Shown: positions 4,446-9,197 of the stretch, piece after piece | Numbering within the stretch: position 1 is the first letter of the stretch | How the letters are laid out: each line of letters opens with the position of its first letter | Origin: Methylophilaceae bacterium | GTDB lineage: Bacteria > Pseudomonadota > Gammaproteobacteria > Burkholderiales > Methylophilaceae | Assembly: GCA_026419515.1 (NCBI GenBank) | Contig: JANZZG010000059.1 | Coordinates: 1-43,136 of the forward strand | Direction: 5' to 3' | DNA length: 43,136 bases | Made by a program: the position numbers and the translations under genes | Notes under the pieces: model-generated | What the model was told of the DNA's origin: nothing | The model's input: the letters and a program-made list of their open reading frames with translations, nothing else | The model's database searches: none

Positions 4446-6341
4446 ATGACCACCACAAAAGAAACCTTGGGCTTTCAGGCCGAGGTCAAGCAGCTGCTGC
4501 ATCTGATGATCCATTCCTTGTATTCGAACAAGGAAATTTTTCTACGCGAACTGATTTCCAATGCGAGTGATGCTGCCGACAAGTTACGTTTCGAGGCGTT
4601 GTCCGACCCCGCGTTGTTCGAGAACGACAGCGAGCTCAAAATCCGCATCGCCTTCGACAAGGCCGCCCGCACCCTCACCATCACCGACAATGGCATCGGT
4701 ATGAGCCGCCAGGAGGTGATCGATCACATTGGCACCATCGCCAAGTCCGGCACGCGCGAGTTCCTGGCCCGACTTTCGGGCGATCAGCAGAAGGATGCCA
4801 CCCTCATCGGCCAGTTCGGCGTCGGTTTCTACTCGGCCTTCATCGTGGCCGACAAGGTGACGCTGACCACCCGCCGCGCCGGGCTGACGCCCGAGCATGG
4901 CGTGCGTTGGGAGTCGTGCGGGGAGGGTGAGTACACGGTGGAAATGGTCAACAAGCCCACGCGTGGCACCGAGATCGTGCTGCACTTGCGCGAAGGAGAA
5001 GACGAGTTTCTCTCGGACTGGAGGCTCAAGAGCATCATTCGCAAGTACTCCGACCACATCACGCTGCCCATCGTGATGAAAAAGACGGAGTGGAAGGATG
5101 GCGAGCAAGTGCCGACCGACGAGGACGAGGTGGTCAATCAGGCCTCTGCGTTGTGGGCACGCCCCAAGAACGAGATCACCGAGGCGCAGTACGAGGAATT
5201 CTACAAGCACGTGGCACATGATTTCGAGAAGCCATTGGCATGGAGCCATACCCGTGTGGAGGGCAAGCAGGAATACATTTCTTTGCTCTACATCCCTTCC
5301 CGGGCACCGTTCGATCTCTACGACCGGGAACGTCGCCATGGCATCAAGCTCTACGTCAAGCGCGTGTTCATCATGGAGGATGCCGAGCAGCTGATGCCGG
5401 CCTATCTACGTTTCGTGCGCGGTGTGATCGATGCTTCCGATCTACCACTCAACGTGTCGCGTGAAATGCTGCAACATAGCAGGGAAATCGATGCCATCCG
5501 GGCTGGCTCGGTGAAGCGGGTGCTGGGACTCCTGGAGGATATGGCCGAGCACCAGCCGGAAAAATACGCCATCTTCTGGCAGGAATTCGGTCGTGTGCTC
5601 AAGGAAGGTCCCGGTGAGGATTTTGCCAACCGCGATCGAATTGCTGGCCTGTTGCGGTTTGCTTCTACCCACACCGATACTGCGGAAGCAACCGTGTCTC
5701 TCAAGGATTACGTCGGCCGTATGAAGAAAGGGCAAGACAAGATTTATTACATCACGGCGGATTCCTTCGCCGCTGCCAAGCATAGCCCGCATCTGGAAAT
5801 CTTCCGCAAGAAAGGCATCGAGGTGTTGCTGTTGTTCGACCGGGTGGATGAGTGGTTGGTATCCAGCCTGCCGGAGTTCGACGGCAAAAGGTTACAGTCG
5901 GTGGCCAAGGGTGACCTCGATCTGGGTGAGCTGGAAGACGAAACGGAAAAAGAAGCACACAAGCGAGCCGAAGACGAATACAAGGACCTGCTCGAAAAAA
6001 TCAAGACCACCTTGGGAGAGGACAAGGTTCGCGAAGTGCGCGTCACTCACCGGCTCACCGATTCACCTTCCTGCCTGGTGACCGGCGAGCACGACATGAG
6101 CATTCATCTGGAACGCATGTTGAAAGCCGCTGGACAAAAAGGGCCGGGGGTCAAACCGATACTAGAAATCAATCCCCAGCATGCGCTGGTGGCACGCCTG
6201 AAATCAGAAGCCGATGAAGCGCGTTTCACCGACTGGGCGCATTTGTTGTTCGACCAGGCGCTTTTGGCCGAGGGTGGTCAGTTGGACGACCCAGCAGCTT
6301 TCGTCAAGCGGCTAAACAGCCTACTCGCCTTGCTCAAGTAG
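4446..6341 (+). CDS. htpG: Chaperone protein HtpG (bacterial Hsp90)
   Basis: ATP-dependent homodimeric cytosolic chaperone that remodels client proteins with DnaK. The 631-residue product has the full N-M-C layout. The GHKL ATPase pocket is clear: [19 protein letters not shown] near residues 31-49, DNGIGMS, and [19 protein letters not shown]. The middle domain includes [23 protein letters not shown], and the C-terminal dimerisation region ends in [19 protein letters not shown] stands about 10 bases before the ATG. Regulation is probably by RpoH, given the promoter at 4377-4405. Downstream it converges on the DUF2934 gene, with 45 bases between the stops and no clear T-tailed terminator. Confidence 0.98.
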
Positions 6342-6386
6342 GCGGCGGTAGATGCTTGGTATCCTGGCGCACCGGCAGCCAAGGGG

Positions 6387-6674
6387 TCACCCTTCTTCCA
6401 GCATGCGAGTGATATAGACCTCGGCTTGGGCCCAATAATCTTTTGGGTCTCCCCGGAAACCATCGGCTTCGGCGATGAAGTAAGCGCGATTCTGAATCCA
6501 GACATAACGCTCTTCTGGACTCAGGGTGATCTTGGGGGCGGCAGCTTCCTTGCGGGCGGTGGCCTTCTTGGGGGTTGCAGGCTTGGTCGCCTTGGTGGCG
6601 GATGCCGGTTTCGTCGTGGCGGATTTTGCAGCTGGTTTGGTGGCTGCAGCAGACTTGGTCTTGGTTTCAGCCAT
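6387..6674 (-). CDS. Small DUF2934 protein with basic Ala/Lys/Thr/Pro-rich N-terminal tail
   Basis: A 95-residue protein. Residues 1-48 are almost entirely Ala, Lys, Thr, Pro and Ser with repeated TKPA/TKAT-like units, resembling the unstructured tails of bacterial histone H1-like and AlgP-type proteins. Residues about 54-90 (from EERYVWIQNRAYFIAEADG to a WAQAEVYI motif) fit the short DUF2934 domain, of unknown function. The start at 6674 is set by AAAGGAGG, a near-perfect ribosome binding site, 5-6 bases upstream; the open frame extends 16 codons further without support. It has its own sigma-70-like promoter (6722-6750) and probably forms a single-gene transcript. Nucleic-acid binding through the tail is inference from composition only. 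Confidence 0.75.
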   Translation of the reverse strand: MAETKTKSAAATKPAAKSATTKPASATKATKPATPKKATARKEAAAPKITLSPEERYVWIQNRAYFIAEADGFRGDPKDYWAQAEVYITRMLEEG

Positions 6675-6721
6675 GGTAGCCTCCTTTCCTGGAAGATTGA
6701 GCAGCTGTATGACCAGAATCA

Positions 6722-6750
6722 ATCATAGAGGAATAGGGGCCGGTTATCAA
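6722..6750 (-). promoter_or_regulatory. Sigma-70 promoter of the DUF2934 gene
   Basis: Read on the minus strand, a -35 TTGATA (6750-6745) and a -10 TATGAT (6727-6722) are separated by exactly 17 bases; each matches the consensus at 5 of 6 positions. It lies in the 109-base gap after tldD and would start transcription near 6715, about 40 bases before the ATG. The quality suggests abundant, constitutive expression. Confidence 0.72.
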
Positions 6751-6783
6751 CTTCGAGAAGCGATGTCCATTCCCGGGTCACTA

Positions 6784-8259
6784 TTACGTATGGGTTCCGC
6801 CTACGGTCAATCCGTCGATACGGATGGTGGGCTGGCCGACACCGACGGGTACGCTCTGACCCTCCTTGCCGCAGGTGCCCACACCAGGATCCAGTGCCAT
6901 GTCGTTGCCAATCATGGAGACACGCTTGAGCACATCCGGCCCGTTGCCGATCAGGGTGGCGCCTTTGACCGGATACGTGAGCCTGCCGTTTTCGATCATC
7001 CATGCCTCGGCGGCCGAAAACACGAATTTCCCGCTGGTGATGTCCACTTGTCCGCCCCCAAAGTTGACGGCATATAGCCCTTTTTTTACTGAACGGATGA
7101 TTTCTTCCGGTGCCATGTCGCTGTTCAGCATGTAAGTGTTGGTCATGCGTGGCATGGGGATGTGCGCGTAAGATTCGCGTCGGCCATTGCCGGTCAGGCC
7201 GACCCCCATCAGGCGGGCATTGAGGGTGTCTTGCAGATAGCCCTTGAGGATGCCATCTTCAATCAGCACGGTGCATTGCGTGGGAGTGCCTTCGTCGTCG
7301 ATGTTGAGCGAGCCTCTACGCCGCGCCAAGGTACCGTCATCCACGACCGTGACGCCACGCGCAGCCACCTGCTGCCCGATACGACCGGCGAAGGCGGAAC
7401 TGCCCTTGCGGTTGAAGTCGCCTTCCAAGCCGTGGCCGATCGCTTCGTGCAGTAGGATGCCAGGCCAGCCCGGACCCAGTACCACGGTCATGGGGCCTGC
7501 CGGCGCTGGGCGCGCCTTAAGGTTGGTCACGGCCTGATGCACGGCTTTTCTCGCATAATCTTGCAATACGTCATCGGTGAACACGGAATAGTCGAAACGG
7601 CCGCCACCGCCACTTGTTCCTTGTTCACGTCGCCCCCCCTGCTCGGCGATCACCTGCAGTGACAGGCGCACCAACGGGCGGATGTCGGCAGCCAGCATGC
7701 CGTCGTGGCGCGCGATCAGTACCACCTCGTATTCACCGGAAAGGGAAGCCATGACCTGCGTGATGCGTGGATCCAGCGCGCGGGCGTAGCGTTCCAGGCG
7801 TTCCAGCAGTTTGACTTTTTGATCGTCCGCCAGTGAGGCGATCGGATCCTCCGGCACATACAGTGAAAGTTTCCTCCCCGAACGGGGGGCGATGGTGCCG
7901 GCACTTCCATTGCCTCCTAGTGCAGCGATGGCACGGGTGGCCTGAGCTGCCTGTTGCAAGGCTGGCAGGCTGATCTCGTCGGAGTAGGCGAACGCCGTCT
8001 TTTCGCCTGATACGGCACGTACACCCACCCCTTGGTCGATGTGGAAACTCCCTGATTTGACTTGGCCTTCTTCCAGCCCCCAGCTTTCGGCGCGGCTGTA
8101 TTGAAAGTAGAGGTCGGCGTAATCCACGCGGTGGGTCAGTAGGCTCCCCAGGACCGACTGAAGTGCGGCAAAGTCCAGGCCATGGGGGGCCAGCAGGGTG
8201 CCACTCGCGGTGACGAGCAGCGTGCCAGGCTCTGGGCTGGAAGCCGCATGGTGTTTCAT
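6784..8259 (-). CDS. tldD: Metalloprotease TldD
   Basis: Large-subunit partner of the TldD/TldE(PmbA) heterodimeric zinc protease, known for unfolded-peptide cleavage, CcdA antitoxin turnover and microcin B17 maturation. With the ATG at 8259 the product is 491 residues, near the usual 480. The active-site motif [11 protein letters not shown] is at about residues 271-281, followed by NRKGSSAF, and the C-terminus [11 protein letters not shown] is typical. The chosen start has GAGG about 5 bases upstream; the frame continues 25 codons further into the spacer after the amidase gene without family similarity. TldE/PmbA is not encoded in this window. The order yhdP, amidase, tldD is conserved in many proteobacteria. 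Confidence 0.95.
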
Positions 8260-8327
8260 GGTGTCCTCAACGGATTCCAGTCCAGCAGCGAAGCCAGGAT
8301 CGCCCGTGTCCGGGCTCATGGAGGCCG

Positions 8328-9197
8328 TCAACATTCATGCAGCACCCGGTGCTGGAGCGCAGGCAGGCTTTTGCGCAGGCTGGCCTGGTAAGCCGGGTTG
8401 ACGTTGGCGATGACCACGCCGGAACCACGCGGCAGGCGGTCCAGCACCACACCCCAGGGATCGACGATCATGCTGTTGCCATGGGTTTCGCGTCCAGAGA
8501 TGTGGTAGCCGCCTTGCGCCGGCGCTAGCACATAACACAGGTTTTCGATGGCGCGGGCACGTACCAGAATCTCCCAGTGGGCCTTGCCAGTGGTGTCAGT
8601 GAAGGCAGATGGCACCACGATCAGGTCGACTTCCCCCATGGCCCGGTAGAGTTCTGGAAACCGTAAGTCATAACAGATGGAAAGCCCGATGCGCCCGAGC
8701 GGGGTGTCCACCACCACCACCCCGTCGCCGGGCTCTATGGTGTCGTCTTCGTGGTAGTGCTCGTTGCCGAGGTCGAGGTTGAACAGATGGATTTTGTCAT
8801 AGCGTGCCGCCAGCTTCCCACTGGGGTCATACACCAGACAGGCGTTGCGTACCTTATGAGGGTCGTCGGCTTCCAGTGGTACGGAGCCGCCGACCAACCA
8901 GATTCGGTGTTTTTTGGCCATCCTGGACAAAAATCGTTGTATGGGACCCGTACCTTCCTTTTCCCTCACGGCGACCTTGTCGGTGTCCTTGAGTCCCATG
9001 ATGGCGAAGTACTCCGGTAATGCGACCAGCTGGGCCCCTTGTCCCACCGCGATTTCGATCAGGCGTTCCGCCTCGCTCAGATTGGCCGATACCTGCGGAC
9101 CAGAAGCCATCTGGATGCCGGCGATTTTGATGATGCTCGCACTCGAAACAGCAGACTGTGCCGTTTGTTCCAATTGCGAGCGCGATTTGATGGCCAT
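8328..9197 (-). CDS. Nitrilase-superfamily carbon-nitrogen hydrolase (Nit1/YbeM type, probable deaminated glutathione amidase)
   Basis: A 289-residue cysteine hydrolase with the complete Glu-Lys-Cys triad: E62 in [13 protein letters not shown]135 in [12 protein letters not shown], and C175 in [14 protein letters not shown]. These motifs match the Nit branch whose characterised members remove deaminated glutathione, a by-product of transaminases; exact substrate assignment here is inference from family resemblance. About 20 polar residues precede the first beta strand ([12 protein letters not shown]), so a slightly later start cannot be excluded, but no better start codon is obvious. The ribosome binding site is weak. 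It sits between yhdP (59 bases upstream) and tldD (68 bases downstream), probably in one transcript. Confidence 0.88.

What the first reader, a model, noticed from the sequence alone, without database searches (positions are those of the whole stretch)
6387..6750. Histone-tail-like DUF2934 protein with its own strong promoter
Half of this 95-residue protein is a Lys/Ala/Pro/Thr tail like those of bacterial H1-like proteins, joined to a short DUF2934 domain. It has a near-consensus promoter and an excellent ribosome binding site, so it is probably abundant. A nucleoid-associated or RNA-binding role would be new for DUF2934.
Basis: partly seen in the sequence, partly recalled or inferred. Interest (0 to 1): 0.5.

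Follow-up and report, generated by a model that had tools for sequence, protein, structure and literature searches.

The report
Histone-H1-like tail on DUF2934 hairpin
A small, uncharacterised bacterial protein really does carry a lysine-rich tail like that of histone H1, its relatives keep that tail and a strong promoter, and it is probably an unrecognised DNA-coating or tethering protein, although no binding has been tested.

Summary
Window 6387-6674 (minus strand) encodes 95 aa: a disordered Lys/Ala/Thr/Pro tail (net +10) and an acidic DUF2934 domain (net -4; Pfam 4.4e-9), predicted to be a two-helix hairpin. The tail is no local oddity: of 80 named relatives found with a pattern from the domain alone, 77 carry such an N-terminal tail (31 of 31 Methylophilaceae), against 4 of 622 neighbouring ORFs. 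The tail is under purifying selection (dN/dS 0.26; domain 0.07); between families little beyond composition is kept. In other classes of the phylum some DUF2934 proteins carry a similar tail on the other side. A TTGAC/TANNNT promoter precedes 50 of 79 relatives, against 7 of 460 control genes. In 18 of 31 Methylophilaceae loci the gene lies between tldD and mfd; the htpG neighbour here is not conserved. PHA synthase is nearly absent from the family (4 of 150 genomes), arguing against a phasin; polyphosphate kinase is common (120 of 150), so an AlgP-like granule tether stays open. Best reading: an H1-like nucleic-acid-binding protein whose hairpin dimerises or docks a partner. Binding is inferred, not shown.

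The parts
6387..6674 (-). CDS, 95-residue protein: basic tail plus DUF2934
   Evidence: aligned relatives start at the same ATG
6534..6674 (-). Residues 1-47: disordered Lys/Ala/Thr/Pro tail, H1-like
   Evidence: composition; block-mean pLDDT 47-54 for residues 1-40; kept in 77 of 80 relatives
6420..6512 (-). DUF2934 domain (Pfam match residues 55-85; predicted helices 53-70 and 77-94)
6680..6687 (-). Shine-Dalgarno AAAGGAGG, 5 nt before ATG
   Evidence: sequence; SD-like motif in 76 of 80 upstream stretches (window plus 79 relatives)
6722..6750 (-). Promoter-like site: -35 TTGATA (6750-6745), 17 nt, -10 TATGAT (6727-6722)
   Evidence: sites of this type upstream of relatives
6784..8334 (-). 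Upstream neighbour tldD (ORF; exact start not settled), same strand; within 300 bp upstream in 23 of 31 Methylophilaceae relatives
   Evidence: Pfam; synteny
4446..6341 (+). Convergent neighbour htpG; adjacency not conserved
   Evidence: Pfam; no htpG match in the 80 relatives' loci

Best explanation
A small H1-like nucleic-acid-binding protein made from its own sigma-70-type promoter. The flexible Lys/Ala/Pro/Thr tail (net +10 here; median +16.5 in the 80 relatives) binds DNA electrostatically, as the tails of AlgP, PhaF and mycobacterial MDP1 are reported to do. The acidic DUF2934 helical hairpin does not touch DNA; it dimerises or docks a partner, so that two tails are bridged or a partner is held on the nucleoid. 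Shown here: architecture, tail conservation and constraint, predicted disorder and hairpin, promoter-type site upstream of most relatives, linkage to tldD and mfd. Inferred: promoter activity, nucleic-acid binding, preference for DNA over RNA, dimerisation or docking, abundance.
For: Tail in 77 of 80 relatives against 4 of 622 other ORFs (first 55 residues; 13 of 622 in any window); the search pattern came from the domain only. Tail dN/dS 0.26 against 0.07 for the domain over 11 close pairs. Between families tails align only slightly better than shuffled ones (mean z 1.44, 84 pairs; within families z 4.92, 66 pairs), as expected if composition matters most. Tail disordered, hairpin confident. 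Domain net charge zero or below in 78 of 80. C-terminal tail flagged in 11 of 29 phylum-draw loci, clear on sight in L206, L217, L220, L229, L230 (all from other classes); N-terminal in 15 of 30 class-draw loci (controls 5 and 4 of 367), so the pairing recurs. Promoter-type site. Neighbour mfd acts on DNA (L110 neighbour confirmed by NCBIfam). Precedents: AlgP and PhaF (PMC9239181, passages), MDP1 (PMC5974015, passages).
Against: No binding, localisation or expression data. Basic disordered tails also bind RNA, polyphosphate or membranes. DUF2934 occurs in proteins with no evident link to DNA: a PAS-GGDEF protein, cytochrome b561-type and fatty-acid-hydroxylase proteins, and one with DUF6781. 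Not every DUF2934 is tailed: 10 of 30 family loci, 11 of 30 class loci and 17 of 29 phylum loci met no tail criterion. The promoter pattern was absent in 29 of 79, including 6 of 6 Rhodocyclaceae-like loci. DUF2934 proteins are listed in tables of vesicle and released proteins of two other bacteria. Small genomes of the family (g14, g16) gave no match, so the gene is dispensable there. No sequence or structural relative of known function in PDB.
Confidence: 0.5

Rival explanations
1. Polyphosphate-granule tether or organiser: the tail binds polyphosphate and/or DNA, and the hairpin links granules, as proposed for AlgP of Pseudomonas aeruginosa.
For: AlgP has an H1-like KPAA tail and is needed for even spacing of polyP granules (PMC9239181, passages). 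KPAA occurs in 42 of 80 relatives' tails and in the window's. Polyphosphate kinase in 120 of 150 family genomes including this one, and in 73 of the 79 with a P0001 match.
Against: Ppk is common anyway (47 of the 71 genomes without a P0001 match also have it), and small genomes confound the comparison. Ppk was not looked for beside the relatives. AlgP's helical N-domain is 124 aa and is not known to me to be DUF2934.
Confidence: 0.15
2. RNA- or ribosome-associated protein: the tail binds structured RNA rather than DNA.
For: Composition fits general polyanion binding; small size and strong SD resemble ribosome-associated proteins (inference only). An elongation factor P gene lies within four genes in 10 of 80 loci (one exemplar checked by Pfam).
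Against: Nothing direct; the EF-P gene was next to the relative in only 3 of those loci, on the other strand.
Confidence: 0.15
3. Phasin-like PHA granule protein with a nucleoid-binding tail (PhaF or PhaM type).
For: H1-like tail plus helical module, as in PhaF.
Against: PHA synthase (PF07167) in 4 of 150 family genomes and not found in this one, whereas 79 of the same 150 handles have a P0001 match.
Confidence: 0.03
4. A stress-protective or released protein in which the tail acts as a charged spacer or cell-envelope anchor, without specific nucleic-acid function.
For: DUF2934 proteins listed in Chlorobaculum vesicle and Asaia released-protein tables and up about 4-fold in a Sinorhizobium rpuS mutant on pyruvate, a state that the authors call consistent with starvation.
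Against: No hydrophobic signal-like start in the 80 translations (seen by eye; no signal program run). Those proteins are from other groups of bacteria and I did not see their sequences, so they may not be tailed.
Confidence: 0.12

Closest known systems
DUF2934 (Pfam PF11154)
   Same: Member by profile: 36.3 bits over the 22-bit cut-off
   Different: The Pfam model covers only the 37-position hairpin; the H1-like tail is outside it
AlgP / PhaF (Pseudomonas H1-like KPAA-tail proteins)
   Same: Long disordered Lys/Ala/Pro tail joined to a helical module (PMC9239181, passages)
   Different: Tail here is N-terminal, shorter and with more Thr; the folded module is a short acidic hairpin; no PHA synthase found
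MDP1 (mycobacterial HU with H1-like tail)
   Same: Tail rich in Lys, Ala, Pro with short repeats; IDR-dependent DNA compaction reported (PMC5974015, passages)
   Different: MDP1's folded part is an HU-type domain with a DNA-binding arm; none here
Chlamydial Hc2 and Bordetella BpH1
   Same: Hc2 varies in length through lysine-rich pentamers (PMC2848022, start of abstract in listing); BpH1 recalled as similar
   Different: No DUF2934 in them as far as I recall; no Pfam histone-H1-like model among this protein's matches at E up to 1

Membership tests
DUF2934 (PF11154) | Profile match over the curated cut-off | tested here: met
   36.3 bits against 22, E 4.4e-9; the only match in this genome assembly
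DUF2934 (PF11154) | Conserved A-Y...A-E...F...W..A-E hairpin core | tested here: met
   A64 Y65 A68 E69 F73 W81 A84 E85 invariant in 18 aligned sequences; two helices predicted
Bacterial H1-like tail proteins (AlgP, PhaF, MDP1, Hc2) | Long disordered tail rich in Lys, Ala, Pro with few acidic or hydrophobic residues | tested here: met
   criterion met (set by me after seeing the tails); low pLDDT
Bacterial H1-like tail proteins (AlgP, PhaF, MDP1, Hc2) | Binds DNA through the tail | not testable with these tools
   needs EMSA, ChIP, imaging
Existing H1-like profile families (Pfam HC1/HC2, names recalled) | Match to such a profile | tested here: not met
   not among the four Pfam matches at E up to 1 (DUF2934; weak DUF6465 0.0042, YqeC, DAB2P_C below cut-off); NCBIfam none
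PHA phasin (PhaF/PhaM) | PHA synthesis in the same organism | tested here: not met
   PF07167 in 4 of 150 family genomes, none found in this 92.94% complete assembly
AlgP-like polyP granule protein | Polyphosphate synthesis in the organism | tested here: met
   PF02503 in this genome and 120 of 150 in all
AlgP-like polyP granule protein | Localisation to polyP granules | not testable with these tools
   needs microscopy

The most novel reading that the evidence does not exclude
DUF2934 marks a phylum-wide, unrecognised class of bacterial H1-like chromatin proteins: a short acidic hairpin repeatedly joined, on either side, to a linker-histone-type tail, bridging DNA or loading partners (perhaps repair or granule factors) on the nucleoid.
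Probability: 0.3. Interest if true: 0.75.

Novelty: new variant of a known kind. Interest (0 to 1): 0.45.

Why it matters
Few bacterial proteins with linker-histone-like tails have been studied. A conserved family with such a tail and a defined small partner domain, found in culturable methylotrophs, would give a simple system to ask what H1-like tails do outside eukaryotes, and would give a first functional handle on DUF2934.

Tried and rejected
P0001 alone against genome contigs found nothing; the alignment was needed. No NCBIfam family; PHROG matches only at 0.076 and weaker. PDB sequences: best E 0.25, an antibody chain. Foldseek against PDB: no match at E 0.001 or better; a two-helix hairpin is uninformative. 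No Rfam match at 6300-6900. htpG adjacency as a functional clue: rejected, no match in 80 loci. PHA phasin: rejected for this family. Codon-bias test of abundance: inconclusive. S/T-P-K/R-K/R minor-groove motif as a signature: only 11 of 80 tails, though the window has one (TPKK). I first read the mfd neighbour as typical of Gallionellaceae (second note); the check showed it in the next position in 18 of 31 Methylophilaceae and 2 unresolved loci, and two genes away in 3 Gallionellaceae. The regex missed the domain in 18 of 59 loci; one search repeated the work with a profile and its counts are used. A Pfam scan of the first 150 residues of an mfd exemplar gave nothing; the whole neighbour in L110 was then identified.

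Full report
What is there. The minus-strand ORF 6387-6674 encodes MAETKTKSAAATKPAAKSATTKPASATKATKPATPKKATARKEAAAPKITLSPEERYVWIQNRAYFIAEADGFRGDPKDYWAQAEVYITRMLEEG. Residues 55-85 match Pfam DUF2934 at 4.4e-9; it is the only match in this 1.86-Mb assembly. Residues 1-51 have net charge +10, the remaining 44 have -4. AlphaFold on an 18-sequence alignment gives a low-confidence tail (block means 47-54 for residues 1-40) and a confident two-helix hairpin, 53-70 and 77-94 (block means 93-97 for residues 51-90).

Where it is. The family group f1 is Methylophilaceae: contigs of f1 genomes and named records have the same lengths and places (G010 C11 and NZ_JAJAVC010000003.1, Methylobacillus arboreus, both 1,041,989 bases; G018 C21 and a Novimethylophilus contig, both 101,621). 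The genus search held only this genome.

Is the tail general? P0001 matches 79 of 150 family genomes, this one included, and 20 of 24 genera. The 29 relatives' loci L063-L091 fetched there all show a Lys/Ala-rich N-terminal tail (read by eye). A search of named genomes with a pattern drawn only from the domain core kept 80 loci, the best of 150 confirmed. After hand correction of one start, 77 of 80 tails meet a fixed criterion (K+R at least 18%, A+P+T+S at least 40%, D+E at most 12%, hydrophobic at most 20%): Methylophilaceae 31 of 31, Gallionellaceae/ales 26 of 27, Rhodocyclaceae-like 5 of 6, unresolved 15 of 16; the failures are L150, L153 and L162. Of 622 other ORFs of at least 85 aa in the same loci, 4 meet it in their first 55 residues and 13 in any window; many of these look like spurious frames. 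Caveats: I set the criterion after seeing tails, and the final ranking of the 80 used tblastn with the full window protein, which could favour tailed relatives.

Wider DUF2934. DUF2934 is in 88 of 150 family genomes, 96 of 369 class genomes and 88 of 398 phylum genomes. Only the best-scoring loci were fetched. With a looser 40-residue criterion, 15 of 30 class loci have an N-terminal and 4 a C-terminal tail (19 either); of 29 phylum loci 1 has an N-terminal and 11 a C-terminal one (two of the 11, L210 and L219, come from the window's own order and do not look H1-like); 20 of 30 family loci, which include a second DUF2934 type, are N-tailed; the first or last 60 residues of 367 conserved neighbour genes give 5 and 4 (these controls come from the 80 named loci only). 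The clearest C-tailed cases (L206, L217, L220, L229, L230) lie outside the window's class. The pairing of hairpin and basic tail therefore seems to have arisen more than once, in either order; no tree was built. DUF2934 also sits in PAS-GGDEF, cytochrome b561-type, fatty-acid hydroxylase and DUF6781 proteins, which suggests a docking or oligomerisation module rather than a DNA-binding one.

Selection. Over 11 close ortholog pairs, dN/dS (Nei-Gojobori) is 0.26 in the tail and 0.07 in the domain: the tail is translated and constrained. Of 150 sampled pairs, 84 between families give tails that align only slightly better than shuffled ones (mean z 1.44) although the domains are 53% identical; the 66 within a family give z 4.92. 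Between families, composition is mainly what persists; tail length runs from 28 to 141 residues.

Promoter. In relatives, TTGACN-(16-18)-TANNNT lies within 200 bp upstream in 50 of 79, against 7 of 460 other genes: Gallionellaceae/ales 22 of 26, Methylophilaceae 20 of 31, unresolved 8 of 16, Rhodocyclaceae-like 0 of 6. Three caveats: relatives are not independent; control genes are often operon-internal, which lowers their count; and in many loci with tldD adjacent, TTGACG falls in the last codons of tldD (sequence). But Methylophilus loci without adjacent tldD and the Gallionellaceae loci have it in other contexts. The window's own -35 is TTGATA and meets only a looser pattern (54 of 79 against 9 of 460; the window is not among the 79).

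Neighbours. tldD was detected in 35 of 80 loci and nit in 29; tldD ends within 300 bp upstream in 23 of 31 Methylophilaceae. A gene with an mfd-type motif follows in 18 of 31, and all 18 also have tldD adjacent; the one in L110 is transcription-repair coupling factor by NCBIfam and Pfam. No htpG match in the 80 loci. The window keeps the nit-tldD side and has htpG where mfd often lies. The mfd link hints at DNA transactions but may be only positional.

Function. PHA synthase is nearly absent (4 of 150), so PhaF/PhaM-type granule binding is unlikely. Polyphosphate kinase is common (120 of 150; 73 of 79 with a P0001 match, 47 of 71 without), leaving the AlgP-like rival open. Tail proteins of this composition are reported to act on DNA in AlgP/PhaF (passages) and MDP1 (passages). 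I therefore commit to tail-mediated DNA binding with the hairpin as dimeriser or dock, at 0.5.

Literature. 'DUF2934' occurs in 4 papers of the library and 'PF11154' in none. The passages read give no function: entries in tables of vesicle and released proteins, a gene up about 4-fold in a Sinorhizobium rpuS mutant on pyruvate, and a neighbour of quorum-sensing genes. The rows shown by searches on H1-like, lysine-rich or Methylophilaceae terms (some lists were capped) include no report of this family; most subscription journals are not held.

Noticed in passing
L237:238-1395 (minus), a family genome: DUF2934 of the same subtype fused in front of PAS and GGDEF domains, a diguanylate cyclase-like protein; the fusion may point to a signalling or docking role of the hairpin.
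   Followed up: partly
L236:166-1038 (+), L028:1438-2205 (minus): DUF2934 at the C-terminus of cytochrome b561-type membrane proteins in two family genomes.
   Followed up: partly
L043:661-1656 (+), L035: DUF2934 at the C-terminus of fatty-acid-hydroxylase-like membrane proteins (L043 by Pfam; L035 by sight).
   Followed up: partly
L127 (Gallionella MAG): Tail of 141 residues with a tandem TAASK-type repeat, the longest of the 80; a sign of repeat expansion as in other H1-like proteins.
   Followed up: no
L113 (contig titled Kiritimatiellae MAG): A tailed DUF2934 protein of the same type in a record labelled as another phylum; mis-binning or transfer.
   Followed up: no
L034, L048: Two class genomes have DUF2934 embedded in longer proteins with a similar N-terminal stretch and no other Pfam match; L034 also ends in an H1-like tail.
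   Followed up: no
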